From positions 701,501 through 765,500 of the forward strand of contig NZ_CP016953.1 in assembly GCF_001708305.1 (NCBI RefSeq): a DNA stretch of 64,000 bases, given 5' to 3'. Shown in pieces: positions 49,471 to 54,604 of this stretch. The position numbers and the translations under genes are program-made. How positions within the stretch are numbered: the first letter of the stretch is position 1; each line of letters begins with the position of its first letter. The DNA comes from Streptococcus himalayensis. Lineage in GTDB: Bacteria; Bacillota; Bacilli; Lactobacillales; Streptococcaceae. Under the pieces are notes generated by a model. The model did no database searches and was not told where the DNA came from. It was given only the letters and a program-made list of their open reading frames with translations.

Positions 49471-49493
49471 GTAACCGCCCCATAACGAGGTGT
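49471..49493 (+). repeat. IS66 left inverted repeat
   Basis: Begins GTAACCGCCCCATAACGAGG and ends TGT; 21 of 23 bases match the right end in inverted orientation. Confidence 0.85.
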
Positions 49494-49555
49494 CTATGAT
49501 ATTTTCCACGCCTCTAGTATACTGTTATCAGAAAACAGAACTGGAGGCTATTTTG

Positions 49556-49741
49556 ATGTCACAACCTATTGTTCCCTTGAAAACACCACAATCTCGTCGA
49601 TTTCCTCATAAATCCAGAAATGATCTGGTAATGAAAATGCGTATTGGAAAAGTTGAACTAAGCTTGTTCCAATCTCTTCATCAAGAAACACTTGAAACTA
49701 TTTTAGATAAGGTACTTACTTATGAGCATCCAACTCAGTGA
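49556..49741 (+). CDS. IS66 accessory protein (TnpA-like, short)
   Basis: 61 residues beginning MSQPIVPLKTPQSRRFPHKS, with TGGAGG eight bases before ATG 49556. Basic and small, it matches the short first ORF of streptococcal IS66-type elements, thought to aid transposition. The 3' end overlaps tnpB by 20 bp. An upstream in-frame ATG at 49490 lies at the inverted repeat and is not favoured. Confidence 0.65.
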   Translation: MSQPIVPLKTPQSRRFPHKSRNDLVMKMRIGKVELSLFQSLHQETLETILDKVLTYEHPTQ

Positions 49742-50072
49742 TTTAGGGCAGGTCTATCTGGTTTGTGGCAAAACCGATATGAGACAGGGGATTGATTCGC
49801 TGGCTTATCTGGTAAAAAGTCAGTTCAACCTTGATCCCTTTTCTGGTCAAGTTTTTCTCTTCTGTGGCGGCCGCAAAGACCGGTTCAAAGCTCTTTACTG
49901 GGATGGACAAGGTTTCTGGTTGCTTTACAAGCGATTTGAAAATGGCAAACTCACTTGGCCTAATGATGAACATGAGGTAAAAGCCCTAACTTCCGAGCAA
50001 GTAGACTGGCTGATGAAGGGATTTTCGATAAGTCCTAAAATAAAATCTACAAAAAGTCGTGATTTCTATTGA
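49722..50072 (+). CDS. tnpB: IS66 Orf2 protein TnpB
   Basis: 116 residues with the IS66 TnpB pattern VYLVCGKTDMRQGIDSLAYL and FLFCGGRKDRFKALYWDGQG-F, then EQVDWLMKGF. The frame is intact and normal length. TnpB is needed with TnpA and TnpC for IS66 transposition; with tnpC broken here it has no functional partner in this copy. Confidence 0.88.
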   Translation: MSIQLSDLGQVYLVCGKTDMRQGIDSLAYLVKSQFNLDPFSGQVFLFCGGRKDRFKALYWDGQGFWLLYKRFENGKLTWPNDEHEVKALTSEQVDWLMKGFSISPKIKSTKSRDFY

Positions 50073-50121
50073 AATCATGGCTTTTCTTTCGGTATAATAA
50101 AGAAAAATGGAGGGTGAGACT

Positions 50122-51683
50122 ATGAAAGAGCTATTAGCCATTATTAAACAACAAGCAGCTGTTAACCAACAACTCACAAATGAACTTGCTCTCCTTCGTG
50201 AACAAGTAGCTTATCTGACACAAAAGCTTTATGGCAAGTCATCAGAGAAGGTTGTGTATCAACCTGGTCAGCTCAGCTTATTCGGTGAGGAAAGCCTACC
50301 TGAAGAAGAATCTGACTTGCCCAGTTGAAACTGAGACTATTACCTATAGACACAAGAAGGCTAAAGGCGTTCGTCAGGCTGTTTTCAGTCAGTTTACTCC
50401 AGAGATGGTTCATCATGAACTAAAAGGCGAAGACTGCACTTGTCCAGACTGTCACGGTCAGTTGACAGAGATTGGCTCAACCGTCCAACGGCAAGAATTG
50501 GTCTTCATCCCTGCACAATTGAAGCGGATTGACCATGTCCAACATGCCTATAAATGTCAAGCATGTAGCCAGAAGAATCTTAACGATAAGATTATCAAAG
50601 CTCCTGTTCCTAAGGCTCCTTTGGCACATAGCCTAGGGTCAGCCTCCATTATTGCCCACACCATTCACCAGAAATTCAATCTCAAGGTCCCCAACTACCG
50701 CCAAGAAGAGGATTGGAACAAGCTTGGCTTGCCAATCACACGGAAGGAAATCGCCAACTGGCACATCAAGTCTAGTCAGTATTATTTCGAGCCGATTTAT
50801 GACCTTCTGCACGAGAAATTACTAGAACAACCTGTTCTCCATGCGGATGAGACTTCTTACAGGGTCTTAGAAAGTGATAGCCAGTTGACCTTCTACTGGA
50901 CCTTCTTATCTGGCAAGCATGAAGAACAGGGCATCACTCTTTATCATCACGATAAAGGGCGGAGTGGCTTGGTTGTGAAGGAGTTTCTTAGAGACTATAA
51001 TGGCTATGTCCATTGTGACATGTGGTCTGCCTATAGGCAGTTAGAACGAGCTCAGCTAGTTGGTTGTTGGGCTCATGTCAGAAGATCTTCTTCGAGGCGA
51101 CGCCTAAAAAGGCAGACAGGACTTCCTTGGGTGCTAAGGGATTAGCCTATTGCGACCGCTTATTTGCTTTGGAGAATGACTGGGTTGACCTCTCTACTGA
51201 AGAGCGACTACATAAACGCCAGGCAGAGTTAGCCCCTTTGATGGACGAGTTCTTCAACTGGTGCCGCAATCAATCTATTTTACCTGGATCAAAACTTGGT
51301 CGTGCGATAGAATATAGCCTTAAATATGAAGAACTATTCAAGGCAGTTCTTCAAGATAGCCGCTTGGTTCTATCCAATAATGTAGCAGAACGCGCTATTA
51401 AGTCCTTGGTCATGGGTAGGAGTGAAAGAGTCCAGTGGACTCTTTCAGCCTGAGCTTAAAAATACAAAAGTGAAGGTGGTTGTTTTCCCAAAGTTTTGAG
51501 GGAGCTAAAGCAACTGCCATTATCCTGAGTTTACTGGAGACAGCTAAGAGGCATGGTCTTGATTCAGAGAAATACATCACTTATCTTCTGGAACATCTTC
51601 CAAACGAGGATTCACTCGAAAAAAAGGAGGTTCTAGAGGCTTATTTACCGTGGACTGAACGAATTCAGAACAACTGCAAATAG
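50122..51683 (+). pseudogene. tnpC: IS66 transposase TnpC, frameshifted and interrupted
   Basis: Four frames together make one transposase: MKELLAIIKQQAAVNQQLTN...EEESDLP (50122-50324), VETETITYRHKKAKG... to CWAHVRR (to about 51085), KIFFEATPKKAD...VMGR (to about 51418) and FSQSFEGAKATAIILSLLET... to stop 51683. The first break is an extra C near 50322, the second a small indel near 51085, the third a ~50-bp hairpin-containing insertion at 51419-51479 replacing a few bases. The catalytic Asp (HADETSYRV), Asp (VHCDMWSAYR) and Glu (NNVAERAIK) are still visible but in different frames. Confidence 0.9.
51419..51479 (+). repeat. Hairpin-bearing insertion inside tnpC
   Basis: AAAGAGTCC-AGT-GGACTCTTT forms a perfect 9-bp stem with the same AGT loop as the terminator at 19612, followed by CAGCCTGAGCTTAAAAATAC. 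Flanks AGTGAAAG and AGTGAAGG are near direct repeats. It splits tnpC between GRK and FSQ, and is not part of IS66. Confidence 0.65.
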
Positions 51684-51725: not shown

Positions 51726-51748
51726 ATACCTCGTTATGGAGCGGTTAC
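51726..51748 (-). repeat. IS66 right inverted repeat
   Basis: Reads ATACCTCGTTATGGAGCGG then TTAC on the plus strand; complementary to the left end apart from two mismatches. It contains the stop codon of the neighbouring minus-strand gene. Confidence 0.85.
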
Positions 51749-52155
51749 TTAGAATCAAGAAAACTATTCTTGATAAAGAAATTACTGGATATATTTTTAA
51801 GTAAATTTTCTATTCCCAAATAGCTAAGAACTGGCAGAGCCATCTCCTTTAAACCATATTTTTTCGACGAATAGTTTTCTAGAAATTCTAAATAATTAAT
51901 GAGTTGCTCTTTATTGATGCCTTGACCTTCTAAATTTTTCTTTAAAATCCAAATGACCTTGTCAACTTCGAACATAGATGCAGTATTTTTATTGATTACA
52001 ACCCCATTTCCCCTTTTTTTATACCATTTATTGTATTCTCTATCAATAATTTGAAAAGTAACAGAATCACCATATTTTTTAGTAGCATTCTGTTTTAATT
52101 TGAAATATCTTAATACTATACAAAAAGCCAATATTGTTGAAATTACTTGGATCAT
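51745..52155 (-). CDS. Small membrane-anchored protein of unknown function, 3' end cut by IS66
   Basis: AAGGAGGG lies four bases before ATG 52155. The 136-residue product has one N-terminal helix (MIQVISTILAFCIVLRYF) followed by a soluble lysine-rich part. Its stop codon TAA (51745-51747 on the complement) lies inside the IS66 right inverted repeat, so the original C-terminus has been replaced. The lost part is not found on the other side of IS66. No family recognised. It is probably co-transcribed with the ORF at 52171-52377, 15 bp upstream. Confidence 0.6.
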   Translation of the reverse strand: MIQVISTILAFCIVLRYFKLKQNATKKYGDSVTFQIIDREYNKWYKKRGNGVVINKNTASMFEVDKVIWILKKNLEGQGINKEQLINYLEFLENYSSKKYGLKEMALPVLSYLGIENLLKNISSNFFIKNSFLDSK

Positions 52156-52170: not shown

Positions 52171-52377
52171 TCATTCTATAAATTTATTTAATCCCATCAT
52201 AATATCCGGTAATTTGACACCATTCTCCAAAAGCAAAACAGTCTTCTCTATAGATATATCAGCAATCTTTATGAAGCAATTTTTTAAGTTCAAAAGGTTC
52301 GTTTTATAGAATATTTTTTCTTCCGTCATATCTAGCTTTTGAACTGTGATAATCTTTTTAGCTTTTTTAGTAAACAT
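52171..52377 (-). CDS. Hypothetical small protein (68 residues)
   Basis: MFTKKAKKIITVQKLDMTEE opens a lysine-rich protein with a mildly hydrophobic middle and no known domain. Its ATG lacks a ribosome site of its own; a strong one (AAGGAGGAG) 32 bp farther up serves instead a five-codon ORF (ATG CAT ATC ACA TAT TAA, start 52410 on the minus strand), so translation could be coupled through a mini-leader, or this frame has lost its true start. Part of a two-gene unit with the IS66-truncated gene. Confidence 0.45.
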   Translation of the reverse strand: MFTKKAKKIITVQKLDMTEEKIFYKTNLLNLKNCFIKIADISIEKTVLLLENGVKLPDIMMGLNKFIE

Positions 52378-52429
52378 CTGCTGGTTTTAAATTAATATGT
52401 GATATGCATAGTAGACTCCTCCTTAAAGC

Positions 52430-52462
52430 TATTATATCATTTTTAACTATGTTTGCATAGTT
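52430..52462 (-). promoter_or_regulatory. Promoter and palindrome of the two-gene unit
   Basis: On the minus strand TATAAT (in GATATAATAG) precedes the AAGGAGGAG ribosome site. About 12 bp upstream AACTATG-CAAA-CATAGTT (52445-52462) is a perfect 7-bp inverted repeat near the expected -35, an operator candidate. Confidence 0.5.
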
Positions 52463-52816
52463 ATATAGATAAAAATTATATAGGTGCTTTTGGACTAATC
52501 TGCAAGTTATAGCATACAGACGGACAACTGTCAAAACTGTTTAATTCTTTCGATAAATATTTCTTTCTCAATTTTTGAGAGCATTTCATATCTCCGTATT
52601 TATTTTTCATTAGCAATATACTGGAAGATTGTGAATTACGGTAGTTCCTCCTATTGTGGGATAGTTATTGATGATTTAGTTAAAATATTTTAAAAATACA
52701 ATACTAAAATACATTGTTTTTGATGGAACGGATATAATTTTATATTATTTTTCACTTTCAGTCCTACTTATCTTTTTATGTGAAGTTTTAATTATCAAAT
52801 ATCGACTTTGATTGTT

Positions 52817-52919
52817 ATTAAAAGATTGCTTATTTCATTATTGACAAAAACTAATTTTTGTCAATAATGAGAATGTCTCCTGTCTTTATTATGAACAAAA
52901 TTCCCAATTTATTAATAAT
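52817..52919 (+). repeat. Direct repeat downstream of the Fic gene
   Basis: About 103 bp (ATTAAAAG...TTCATTATTGACAAAAA...CAATAATGARAATGTCTYCT...TATTATGAACAAAATT...) matching 54244-54347 in the same orientation with roughly 85 percent identity by eye. The space 52463-52816 between this and the small genes is AT-rich and holds nothing else I can name. Confidence 0.85.
52835..52870. promoter_or_regulatory. 36-bp perfect palindrome, downstream copy
   Basis: TCATTATTGACAAAAA-CTAA-TTTTTGTCAATAATGA, 16-bp perfect arms and 4-bp loop. It lies 120 bp past the Fic stop codon. Could be an operator; too A/T rich in the stem end and lacking a GC core for a typical terminator. Confidence 0.7.
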
Positions 52920-52989
52920 ATTTCATATCCAAGATAGGAAAATTCTAATCCTGTATTTATTTCGTTGAATGTTTGTTGTCGCATGACAT

Positions 52990-54219
52990 TTAAAAATCAA
53001 AAAACTCATCAACAATAATGTGTTTGGAAGGACGTTTAACAATTTTTGATAGATATCCAACATGTTCTAATTCTTCGATGCTTCTTTTTATACTTCGTTG
53101 TGAAAATTCGGAATGCTTTAGGAGGTCTAAAATATCATTATCGGTTAGATTATTTTCTGTATCTGGCATAAATAGCTGGGATTGGAGGAGGAGATATATG
53201 ATATGTTTTTGCACTTCTGTGAGTGATAGATTCGACAATTTATCATGATAATACTCTAATAGTTCTATCTTTTGAGCTAATGTAGCAATAATTTCATGCT
53301 GTCCTTTGGTAATATATTTTAAGAGTGTATAGACAAAGGAAGTACCATCAGCTCTATTTAGTATATTTCCGGTATCTGAAAAAGCTTTGTAATAGCTTGA
53401 TTTTGCTTCGTTTATTTTTTTAGAAATAATAAGTCCTGAAAATGGGTCTAATTTTCTAGAAAGGTAGTTTGCCAGGATATAGCGTCCAATTCGTCCATTT
53501 CCATCATAGAAGGGATGAATATTTTCAAAAAAATAATGTCCAAGTGTCGCCTTAATAAGAAAAGGTACGTTTTCGTCATTGATAAAATCAATCCAGCTTT
53601 GCAACATTTCTATTATTTTATCTTCTTTGCCAGGAGGGATATGTTCAATTTTCCCACTTTGATTATTGACAATAGATACGGTGTCTTTTCGGAACAATTT
53701 TCCATCTATTTCGTCCTCTCTATCAATTTCACCGTGAGTTAGTTTGTCATAGATTTCACGAATTTCTTCGATAGAAGCAATATGTAAGAAATCACCATTT
53801 AGAATATCTAAATACATTCTGACAGTGGAGACATACTTAGCGTTTTTCTTTTTATGTAGTGCTTCTATTGCTAACGCTATATCTTTCCTGGTTGTATGAA
53901 TTCCCTCTATTTGGTTGGTAGAGATAATAGCAGTGTATAGGTGCTCTTGATAAAATTGTTTATGGGCTACTTCTGGTAATTTTGTTGCTAAATCTGAGAT
54001 TTTTGTGGAATTTAAGATAATATTTTGCATCATCATAAGAATGTCTAGAAGAGGCATGACAAACAATGGATATTGATTTGACGCAAAACTCTCTTTCTTC
54101 ATCAAATAAGGAAACATACTTGTTTTTATTGTTCCGATACTGTTTAACCGTTTAAAATATTCTTCCTCATAGCTGGAATAATCTTGATAATAAATACTTT
54201 TTAAGTTTTTATAATTCAT
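52990..54219 (-). CDS. Fic-domain AMP-transferase with built-in inhibitory helix and C-terminal winged helix
   Basis: 409 residues. The Fic motif HPFYDGNGRIGR (235-246) is complete, with catalytic His235 and the phosphate-binding Gly/Asn/Arg. An inhibitory motif TNQIEG (101-106) fits (S/T)xxxE(G/N) placed N-terminal to the Fic core, a class II self-inhibited enzyme. The last ~100 residues (TEVQKHIIYLLLQS ... SQRSIKRSIEELEHVGYLSK) look like a winged helix-turn-helix. Such proteins modify target hydroxyls with AMP; target unknown. AAAAAGGA precedes ATG 54219. The gene is isolated, AT-rich, and bracketed by two direct repeats. Confidence 0.9.
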   Translation of the reverse strand: MNYKNLKSIYYQDYSSYEEEYFKRLNSIGTIKTSMFPYLMKKESFASNQYPLFVMPLLDILMMMQNIILNSTKISDLATKLPEVAHKQFYQEHLYTAIISTNQIEGIHTTRKDIALAIEALHKKKNAKYVSTVRMYLDILNGDFLHIASIEEIREIYDKLTHGEIDREDEIDGKLFRKDTVSIVNNQSGKIEHIPPGKEDKIIEMLQSWIDFINDENVPFLIKATLGHYFFENIHPFYDGNGRIGRYILANYLSRKLDPFSGLIISKKINEAKSSYYKAFSDTGNILNRADGTSFVYTLLKYITKGQHEIIATLAQKIELLEYYHDKLSNLSLTEVQKHIIYLLLQSQLFMPDTENNLTDNDILDLLKHSEFSQRSIKRSIEELEHVGYLSKIVKRPSKHIIVDEFFDF

Positions 54220-54262
54220 TGCAAAATATCCTTTTTGGTAATAATTAAAAGACTTTTTTGTT

Positions 54263-54298
54263 TCATTATTGACAAAAACTGAGTTTTGTCAATAATGA
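54263..54298. promoter_or_regulatory. 36-bp palindrome, upstream copy (operator candidate)
   Basis: TCATTATTGACAAAA-ACTGAG-TTTTGTCAATAATGA, 15-bp perfect arms. It contains TTGACA on both strands, so it could overlap a -35 box for the Fic gene, 44 bp from its start. Confidence 0.7.
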
Positions 54299-54315
54299 AA
54301 ATGTCTTCTATCTCT

Positions 54316-54347
54316 ATTATGAACAAAATTCTCCATTTGTCAATAAT
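54316..54347. promoter_or_regulatory. Second, imperfect palindrome next to the upstream copy
   Basis: ATTATGAACAAA ... TTTGTCAATAAT is a looser version of the same dyad (ATTATTGACAAA/TTTGTCAATAAT), centred 51 bp from the first, i.e. about five helical turns. Two like-spaced sites suggest cooperative binding of a dimer. The downstream repeat keeps only a decayed second dyad. Confidence 0.5.
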
Positions 54348-54348
54348 G

Positions 54349-54477
54349 AGAGGTCAAAAGAGAGCAAGAAGCGTCTGGGATAGGATATTCTCTGCTGAAG
54401 AGCCTGCGACTGAAACCATCGTCACCGAGCCAGCTCCAGAAAGTGGAGGTTTTGTTTCTTCAGAAACGACAGAATAA
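54349..54477 (+). pseudogene. Possible C-terminal gene fragment
   Basis: Directly after the Fic repeat the plus frame reads GQKRARSVWDRIFSAEEPAT then ETIVTEPAPESGGFVSSETTE and stop. The basic head and acidic Glu/Pro/Thr tail look like the cytoplasmic end of a larger protein whose 5' part was lost when the Fic cassette arrived. The nearest ATG (54286) lies within the palindrome. Identity unknown. The rest, 54478-54600, shows nothing else. Confidence 0.35.
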
Positions 54478-54604
54478 GGAAGGTTAGCAGGATGGCTTGT
54501 ACAGAACTCCACTGATACTAGGAATGTTGGATCGATGGAGGATTAAAAAGCTATTTGATAATGGATGTAGGGCCTGAAAATTGTTAAACTATGATAAATA
54601 CAGA

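What the first reader, a model, noticed from the sequence alone, without database searches (positions are those of the whole stretch)
52817..54347. Fic gene bracketed by 103-bp direct repeats, each with a 36-bp palindrome
The sequence shows one Fic gene lying between two copies of a ~103-bp repeat in the same orientation, each carrying a perfect 15-16-bp-arm palindrome with the same core (TTATTGACAAA/TTTGTCAATAA) and traces of a second dyad ~51 bp away. One copy overlaps the Fic promoter. The protein has a C-terminal winged helix, so the simplest idea is that Fic binds its own palindromes and represses itself (inference). The second copy downstream is unexplained: it may be an excision/duplication scar of a mobile cassette, or a second site for DNA looping. 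A class II Fic with a built-in inhibitory helix plus its own duplicated operator could be a self-contained, transferable stress or defence module.
Basis: partly seen in the sequence, partly recalled or inferred. Interest (0 to 1): 0.8.

Follow-up and report, generated by a model that had tools for sequence, protein, structure and literature searches.

The report
Fic gene with phased operator arrays
A streptococcal gene for a Fic enzyme (probably an anti-phage toxin) sits behind paired palindromic promoter sites spaced exactly 51 bases apart, a layout that recurs in front of distantly related Fic genes and suggests that these enzymes switch themselves off by binding their own DNA; here a second pair of sites also survives behind the gene.

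Summary
In detail: a 409-aa class II Fic gene (52990-54219, minus) lies between two ~103-bp direct repeats (87% identical, the only full copies in this genome), each with one perfect dyad (16-17-bp arms) and a weaker dyad exactly 51 bp away. Comparison shows an operator array. The closest relatives, in streptococcal satellite phages, have 2-4 such palindromes upstream, 51 bp apart. Across 144 Fic loci, 24 have tandem palindromes, mostly of unrelated sequence, at 51/52 or 40/41 bp (about one helical turn apart), against 4 of 599 control regions, 3 of which overlap Fic's own promoter. Each perfect dyad is also a near-consensus sigma-70 promoter on both strands. Best reading: Fic binds its own phased promoter-operators through a C-terminal winged helix and represses itself, as shown for Yersinia CccR; binding was not tested here, and a test for operator/winged-helix covariation was negative. 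The downstream copy is probably an orphan operator of a lost neighbour: none of 8 other type-A Fic loci has one, while the same palindromes stand without Fic at many prophage and satellite loci, some driving other cargo. New variant of a known kind.

The parts
52990..54219 (-). Fic gene, 409 aa, class II: HPFYDGNGRIGR (residues 235-246) and TNQIEG (101-106)
   Evidence: ORF; Pfam Fic 6.1e-17; motifs conserved in 12 of 12 aligned relatives at E105, G106 and HPFYDGNGR; PADLOC SoFic 1.2e-41
54244..54347 (-). upstream repeat copy = promoter-operator array of the Fic gene
   Evidence: 87% identical to 52817-52919; same array before homologous Fic genes
54261..54300 (.). proximal palindrome (17-bp arms, 6-bp loop), also TTGACA-N16-AATAAT on both strands
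54317..54346 (.). distal, imperfect palindrome 51 bp away; TTGACA-N16-CATAAT towards Fic
52817..52919 (-). downstream repeat copy, read as an orphan operator array
   Evidence: not present downstream in 8 other type-A Fic loci (3 of the 8 repeat the array of another)
52835..52870 (.). perfect palindrome of the downstream copy (16-bp arms, 4-bp loop)
52889..52918 (.). decayed second palindrome of the downstream copy, 51 bp away
   Evidence: 5 mismatches
52788..52825 (-). leader-like stretch after the downstream copy, weakly similar to the Fic leader and start (54215-54252)
   Evidence: 71%; 0.0015 of plain and 0.003 of Markov shuffles reach the score; 6 of 3456 75-mers of the window do too

Best explanation
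The Fic gene is a mobile, satellite-phage-type cargo gene controlled by its own product. Two palindromic promoter-operators in phase (51 bp, about five helical turns) lie in front of it. A Fic dimer binds each through its C-terminal winged helix, neighbouring dimers lie on the same DNA face and presumably cooperate, and this blocks RNA polymerase, because the dyads contain the promoter hexamers themselves. Expression stays low until Fic falls or leaves the DNA. The copy behind the gene is an orphan: the promoter-operator (perhaps with the leader) of a second, now lost gene, left after cargo duplication or replacement. Shown: geometry, recurrence across the Fic family, promoter overlap, orphan copies elsewhere. 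Inferred: binding by Fic, cooperativity, repression, anti-phage role, history of the downstream copy.
For: Same palindrome 2-4 times at 51 bp before homologous Fic genes. 24 of 144 Fic loci have tandem palindromes at 40/41/51/52 bp against 4 of 599 controls, 3 of the 4 overlapping Fic's own promoter. Free choice of offset in 88 loci: 51 in 22, 52 in 12, 40 in 5; without streptococcal types A/B 15, 11 and 5 of 79. Strong palindromes in 42 of 147 Fic promoters, 30 of 610 controls. Array-bearing Fics fall into 7, 11 or 17 clusters at 40, 50 or 60% identity. The five best promoter matches (11 of 12) coincide with the palindromes. Among ORFs of 35 aa or more within 2 kb, no gene other than Fic is shared by more than 4 of 19 array-bearing loci. 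L325: Fic 35% identical to the window's, yet type-A palindrome with a second copy at 52 bp. Precedent: CccR represses itself through an inverted repeat (PMC9755527). Homologs of the Schlafen-like cargo: 0 of 26 with the type-A palindrome.
Against: No binding data. 66 of 144 Fic loci have no palindrome at my threshold. Operator similarity does not follow similarity of the C-terminal domain (68 loci, partial r 0.03, permutation p 0.21). A fresh set of 22 usable loci had only 2 tandem cases, one at 52 bp and one at 128. Many type-A palindromes are not next to Fic and stay intact there, so something else may bind them. The helix-turn-helix signal of this very protein is weak. The four spacings were named after a first look.
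Confidence: 0.68

Rival explanations
1. Another protein, of the host or of phages, binds the palindromes and controls many cargo genes; Fic is only one of the genes served.
For: The same unit precedes DUF3800, two Schlafen/AlbA_2 genes, a 125-aa gene followed by Abi_2, KilA-N, a phage lipoprotein and a zinc-ribbon gene; dyads stay intact there; no covariation with the Fic C-terminal domain.
Against: The phased layout recurs with unrelated palindromes before Fic genes of other genera and phyla; CI-like repressors differ while palindrome and DUF3800 cargo stay the same (L043 and L240); the window keeps its dyads with no repressor gene nearby; homologs of the first Schlafen-like cargo lack the palindrome.
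Confidence: 0.17
2. The repeats are chiefly recombination sites: homologous promoter units through which cargo is exchanged or lost, and their symmetry is incidental.
For: In one pair (L042 with Fic, L043 with DUF3800) the sequence is shared up to the ribosome site and parts there; orphan units beside prophage ends; direct repeats around the gene here.
Against: Does not explain the dyads, the fixed 51/52 or 40/41 bp phase, or their recurrence before Fic genes in unrelated bacteria. The two copies are 13% diverged.
Confidence: 0.1
3. The repeats act as RNA (hairpins in the leader, or an RNA antitoxin as in type III toxin-antitoxin loci).
For: Tandem repeats of 40-51 nt before a toxin-like gene recall type III loci (recalled, no call); in some relatives the last palindrome lies between a ribosome site and the Fic start (read by eye).
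Against: Nothing in Rfam reaches its cut-off; stems are A+T-rich; the only terminator-like match has 3 G-C pairs and points away from Fic; promoter hexamers lie inside the stems.
Confidence: 0.05

Closest known systems
CccR of Yersinia pseudotuberculosis (PMC9755527; abstract, and part 1 of 2 of section 10 read)
   Same: Fic domain with C-terminal DNA-binding domain; inverted repeat in its own promoter; self-repression shown there by reporter, EMSA and footprint
   Different: There one inverted repeat (10-bp boxes 26 bp apart) and no phased tandem array is described in the part read; a secreted effector; the sequence of the boxes differs
SoFic / EcSofic anti-phage toxins (PMC12249575: abstract and section 2 read; PADLOC SoFic)
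   Same: Class II Fic with inhibitory helix and C-terminal domain; profile of 54 relatives matches SoFic structures over positions 185-401
   Different: 69 bits against NCBIfam's SoFic cut-off of 550, so not filed as SoFic proper; EcSofic has a small downstream antitoxin gene (AS1), no shared partner gene was found here; phage defence not tested for this protein
CbFic2 of Coxiella burnetii (PMC10628234; passages seen)
   Same: Class II Fic with a winged helix; DNA binding alters activity
   Different: Described as acting on histones; no operator array in the passages seen; the paper says DNA binding of SoFic had not been shown
Fic cargo genes of Streptococcus satellite phages Javan303/335/337/653 and ORF56 of Lactococcus phage TP901-1
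   Same: Homologous Fic behind tandem palindromes, 51 bp apart in the satellites (64-65% identity), 40 bp apart in TP901-1 (35%)
   Different: There inside mobile elements and with an upstream array only; the window has no integrase or repressor nearby and has a second array downstream

Membership tests
Class II Fic AMPylase | HPFx(D/E)GNGRxxR active site | tested here: met
   HPFYDGNGRIGR at 235-246
Class II Fic AMPylase | (S/T)xxxE(G/N) inhibitory motif before the Fic core (motif recalled) | tested here: met
   TNQIEG at 101-106; E105 and G106 invariant in 12 aligned relatives
SoFic family proper | NCBIfam NF046030 curated cut-off (550 bits) | tested here: not met
   69.2 bits; PADLOC's SoFic model does hit at 1.2e-41
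SoFic-type defence system | protects against phage by AMPylation | not testable with these tools
   needs a bench test
SoFic-type defence system | small antitoxin gene beside Fic (as AS1 of EcSofic) | tested here: inconclusive
   no shared small gene in 19 array-bearing loci, ORFs of 35 aa or more within 2 kb; smaller or sequence-diverse partners would be missed
Self-repressing Fic-HTH (CccR-like) | C-terminal DNA-binding domain | tested here: inconclusive
   HTH_36 0.079 in this protein; TrmB 16 of 54, HTH_24 7 of 54 in relatives; no structure prediction possible
Self-repressing Fic-HTH (CccR-like) | inverted repeat overlapping the Fic promoter | tested here: met
Self-repressing Fic-HTH (CccR-like) | protein binds the repeat and represses | not testable with these tools
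   inferred from geometry only
Streptococcal phage satellite | integrase and CI-like repressor around the cargo gene | tested here: not met
   none among ORFs listed for 48-60 kb; relatives L021-L023, L027 have both
Dispersed repeat family or MITE | many copies in the genome | tested here: not met
   2 copies only

The most novel reading that the evidence does not exclude
Fic operator arrays are a shared language between mobile elements: Fic proteins act in trans on arrays in other satellites and prophages, and the bare arrays that prophages keep beside their attachment end work as decoys. When such a phage replicates, its many array copies pull Fic off its own promoter (or off DNA), so that Fic is made or unleashed: a defence trigger that senses phage DNA copy number by operator titration or, read the other way, a sponge by which the phage disarms Fic.
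Probability: 0.12. Interest if true: 0.85.

Novelty: new variant of a known kind. Interest (0 to 1): 0.6.

Why it matters
Some class II Fic proteins with a winged helix are anti-phage toxins, yet how they are kept quiet is open; the CbFic2 paper states that DNA binding by SoFic had not been shown. A phased operator geometry that survives complete change of sequence gives a simple rule (palindromes 51/52 or 40/41 bp apart before the gene) for finding self-regulated Fic genes and points to cooperative DNA-bound oligomers. Re-use of the same promoter-operator unit by unrelated cargo genes in streptococcal satellites shows how defence cargo may be swapped under a fixed promoter, and the titration idea can be tested in a laboratory phage, TP901-1.

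Tried and rejected
Rfam scan of 51.5-55.5 kb: 2 matches, both far below their cut-offs. The search for related loci with the single Fic protein confirmed nothing in genome contigs or viral contigs; with an alignment it did. CI-like repressor as common binder: set aside because repressors differ while palindrome and cargo stay the same (L043, L240). Schlafen-like cargo as owner of the palindrome: set aside, 0 of 26 homologs have it (starts were placed roughly, and homologs matching only from beyond residue 15 were left out). Remnant of a second Fic or of known cargo behind the downstream copy: no convincing protein-level match, only the weak leader similarity. Covariation of operator and C-terminal domain: negative. 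A second palindrome type searched in viral contigs: 0 hits, so sharing with non-Fic cargo is shown for type A only. The 136-aa ORF at 51745-52155: the search returned itself only. The repeat: no match in the plasmid collection. Two Streptococcus suis defence papers hold neither 'SoFic' nor 'Fic' as a whole word in the main text. Literature: no phased Fic operator array was seen in the listings (open-licence papers, those terms, at most 20 rows each) or in the passages and sections opened. In the counts, loci were merged only if 150 residues of Fic were identical, so near-identical satellites still count apart (hence the cluster counts); 16 of 160 Fic hits fell out of the spacing test (10 as duplicates, 6 for less than 300 bp upstream).

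Full report
OBSERVATION. The window (position 701501-765500 of a 2.28-Mb genome in one contig) holds a 409-aa Fic gene at 52990-54219 on the minus strand. Two direct repeats of about 103 bp bracket it, at 52817-52919 and 54244-54347, 87% identical. Each has a perfect dyad (52835-52870; 54261-54300) and a poorer dyad exactly 51 bp from it. The core occurs 3 times in the window at up to 3 mismatches and never in 100 shuffles; the genome holds no other full copy. The organism is taken to be a Streptococcus from the relatives found; the species was not determined.

THE PROTEIN. Pfam Fic 6.1e-17; catalytic and class II inhibitory motifs are intact. PADLOC SoFic 1.2e-41, but far below NCBIfam's SoFic cut-off (69 of 550 bits). 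A profile of 54 relatives matches SoFic structures over positions 185-401, that is through the C-terminal domain. Helix-turn-helix models are weak in this protein (0.079) and clearer in relatives. So: SoFic-like, with a probable C-terminal winged helix.

WHERE ITS RELATIVES LIVE. The nearest relatives in the phage collection (64-65% identity) are in Streptococcus satellite phages Javan303, 335, 337 and 653, between a CI-like or XRE-type regulator and the integrase; similar ones lie in genomes G021, G099 and G153. More distant ones (35%) sit near the end of phages TP901-1 and Javan169. 32 of 323 family genomes have a Fic at E 1e-30 or better. In the window no integrase or repressor stands nearby; a stretch at 52325-52467 is 71% identical to the DinJ antitoxin region of satellite Javan293, with a weak protein match (E 3.5e-4).

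THE ARRAYS. In front of the close relatives the same palindrome, ATTATTGWCAAAA-N6-TTTTGWCAATAAT ('type A'), stands 2-4 times at exactly 51 bp. TP901-1 has five copies of another palindrome at 40 bp. I then measured 150 distinct Fic loci (loci). Strong palindromes (score 12 or more in the last 160 bp) occur in 42 of 147 Fic promoters and 30 of 610 control promoters from the same loci; an inner AAAA...TTTT core in 40 of 147 and 12 of 610. With 300 bp upstream, 78 of 144 Fic loci have a palindrome, 28 a second copy of it, and 24 a spacing of 51 (14), 52 (7), 40 (2) or 41 (1); other spacings 4; controls 4 of 599 at those spacings, of which 3 overlap Fic's own promoter. Because the spacings were picked after a first look, I also took every offset from 24 to 109 without choosing: in 88 Fic loci with a palindrome the best second copy lies at 51 in 22, at 52 in 12 and at 40 in 5; leaving out the streptococcal A and B types, 15, 11 and 5 of 79. 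The palindromes are of unrelated sequence (for example Gemella, Megasphaera, Atopobiaceae, Oscillospiraceae, phages), and the array-bearing proteins form 7, 11 or 17 clusters at 40, 50 or 60% identity. 51 and 40 differ by about one helical turn, so sites keep the same DNA face. A fresh set gave 24 new loci, 22 usable, 9 with a palindrome and only 2 tandem cases, one at 52 (L325: a Fic 35% identical to the window's, yet with the type-A palindrome) and one at 128. That is too few to replicate the spacing.

MECHANISM. In the window the five best promoter matches (11 of 12) coincide with the palindromes, for the perfect dyads on both strands, so whatever fills a dyad should block RNA polymerase. 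Among ORFs of 35 aa or more within 2 kb, no other gene is shared by more than 4 of 19 array-bearing loci. [quoted passage not shown] The simplest account is self-repression by Fic dimers on phased sites, with cooperativity inferred from the phase. Against it: no binding data, 66 of 144 loci without a palindrome at my threshold, and no covariation between operator and C-terminal domain.

THE COPY BEHIND THE GENE. None of 8 other type-A Fic loci (3 of them repeating the array of another) has one. Likeness between the copies runs on past the palindromes into the Fic leader, weakly, but no convincing remnant of Fic or of known cargo follows. Palindromes without Fic are common elsewhere. Of 284 Streptococcus genomes 26 have the core at up to 3 mismatches (the control pattern: 1), 3 of them only through an unrelated recurring sequence; of the 26 loci opened (mostly 1.5 kb on either side) 4 have Fic. 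In viral contigs a looser pattern found 25 stretches; of the 24 whose neighbouring genes I looked at, 2 have Fic beside it. Judged by eye from the ORFs, most of the rest lie at prophage or satellite sites: between endolysin and attachment end with no gene, or before other cargo: DUF3800, two Schlafen/AlbA_2 proteins, a 125-aa gene followed by Abi_2, KilA-N, a phage lipoprotein, a zinc-ribbon protein. Of 16 named phage records with the unit 4 carry Fic; I opened 7 of the other 12: five carry the DUF3800 gene (99.6-100% identical to that of L043), one the second Schlafen-like gene, one the zinc-ribbon gene. In one pair, L042 and L043, the sequence is shared up to the ribosome site and parts there. 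Of 26 homologs of the first Schlafen-like protein none has this palindrome. So the unit seems to be Fic's promoter-operator, under which other cargo has been exchanged. By eye, L048/L049 show an orphan like the downstream copy, a decayed plus a perfect dyad 51 bp apart, with no phage gene in the 3 kb seen. The downstream copy is best read as such an orphan; looping or a live second promoter are not excluded.

VERDICT. Observation confirmed; interpretation partly supported; a new variant of a known kind (self-repressing Fic-HTH), the novelty being the phased arrays and their orphan or re-used copies.

Noticed in passing
window 54394-54560 and G000:C1:428439-428605: A 167-bp stretch just upstream of the Fic array is 95% identical to the tail of a 208-aa gene next to purR elsewhere in the genome, which is followed there by a fragment of the same luciferase-like monooxygenase gene: the Fic island abuts a rearrangement or duplication boundary.
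   Followed up: partly
window 52325-52467: Stretch 71% identical to the DinJ antitoxin region of satellite phage Javan293; looks like a decayed toxin-antitoxin locus behind the downstream repeat.
   Followed up: partly
L055-L057, L060, L063, L222, L224, L226, L231-L233, L235, L239: Prophage ends behind the endolysin keep several kinds of palindromes of one architecture, with conserved arms and varying loops, and no cargo gene.
   Followed up: partly
L042, L228, L236, L031: Tandem units end in a ribosome-site-like motif followed by a start codon inside the next palindrome, so short leader peptides may precede Fic (read by eye).
   Followed up: no
L047 894-1409, L068 761-1276, L221 1-516: A 171-aa protein without Pfam match lies beside type-A palindromes at prophage ends.
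   Followed up: no
window 49490-51683: IS66 remnants in broken frames between a surface-protein gene and the Fic island.
   Followed up: no
window 51745-52155: 136-aa ORF with a good ribosome site and no relative but itself in the protein search.
   Followed up: partly
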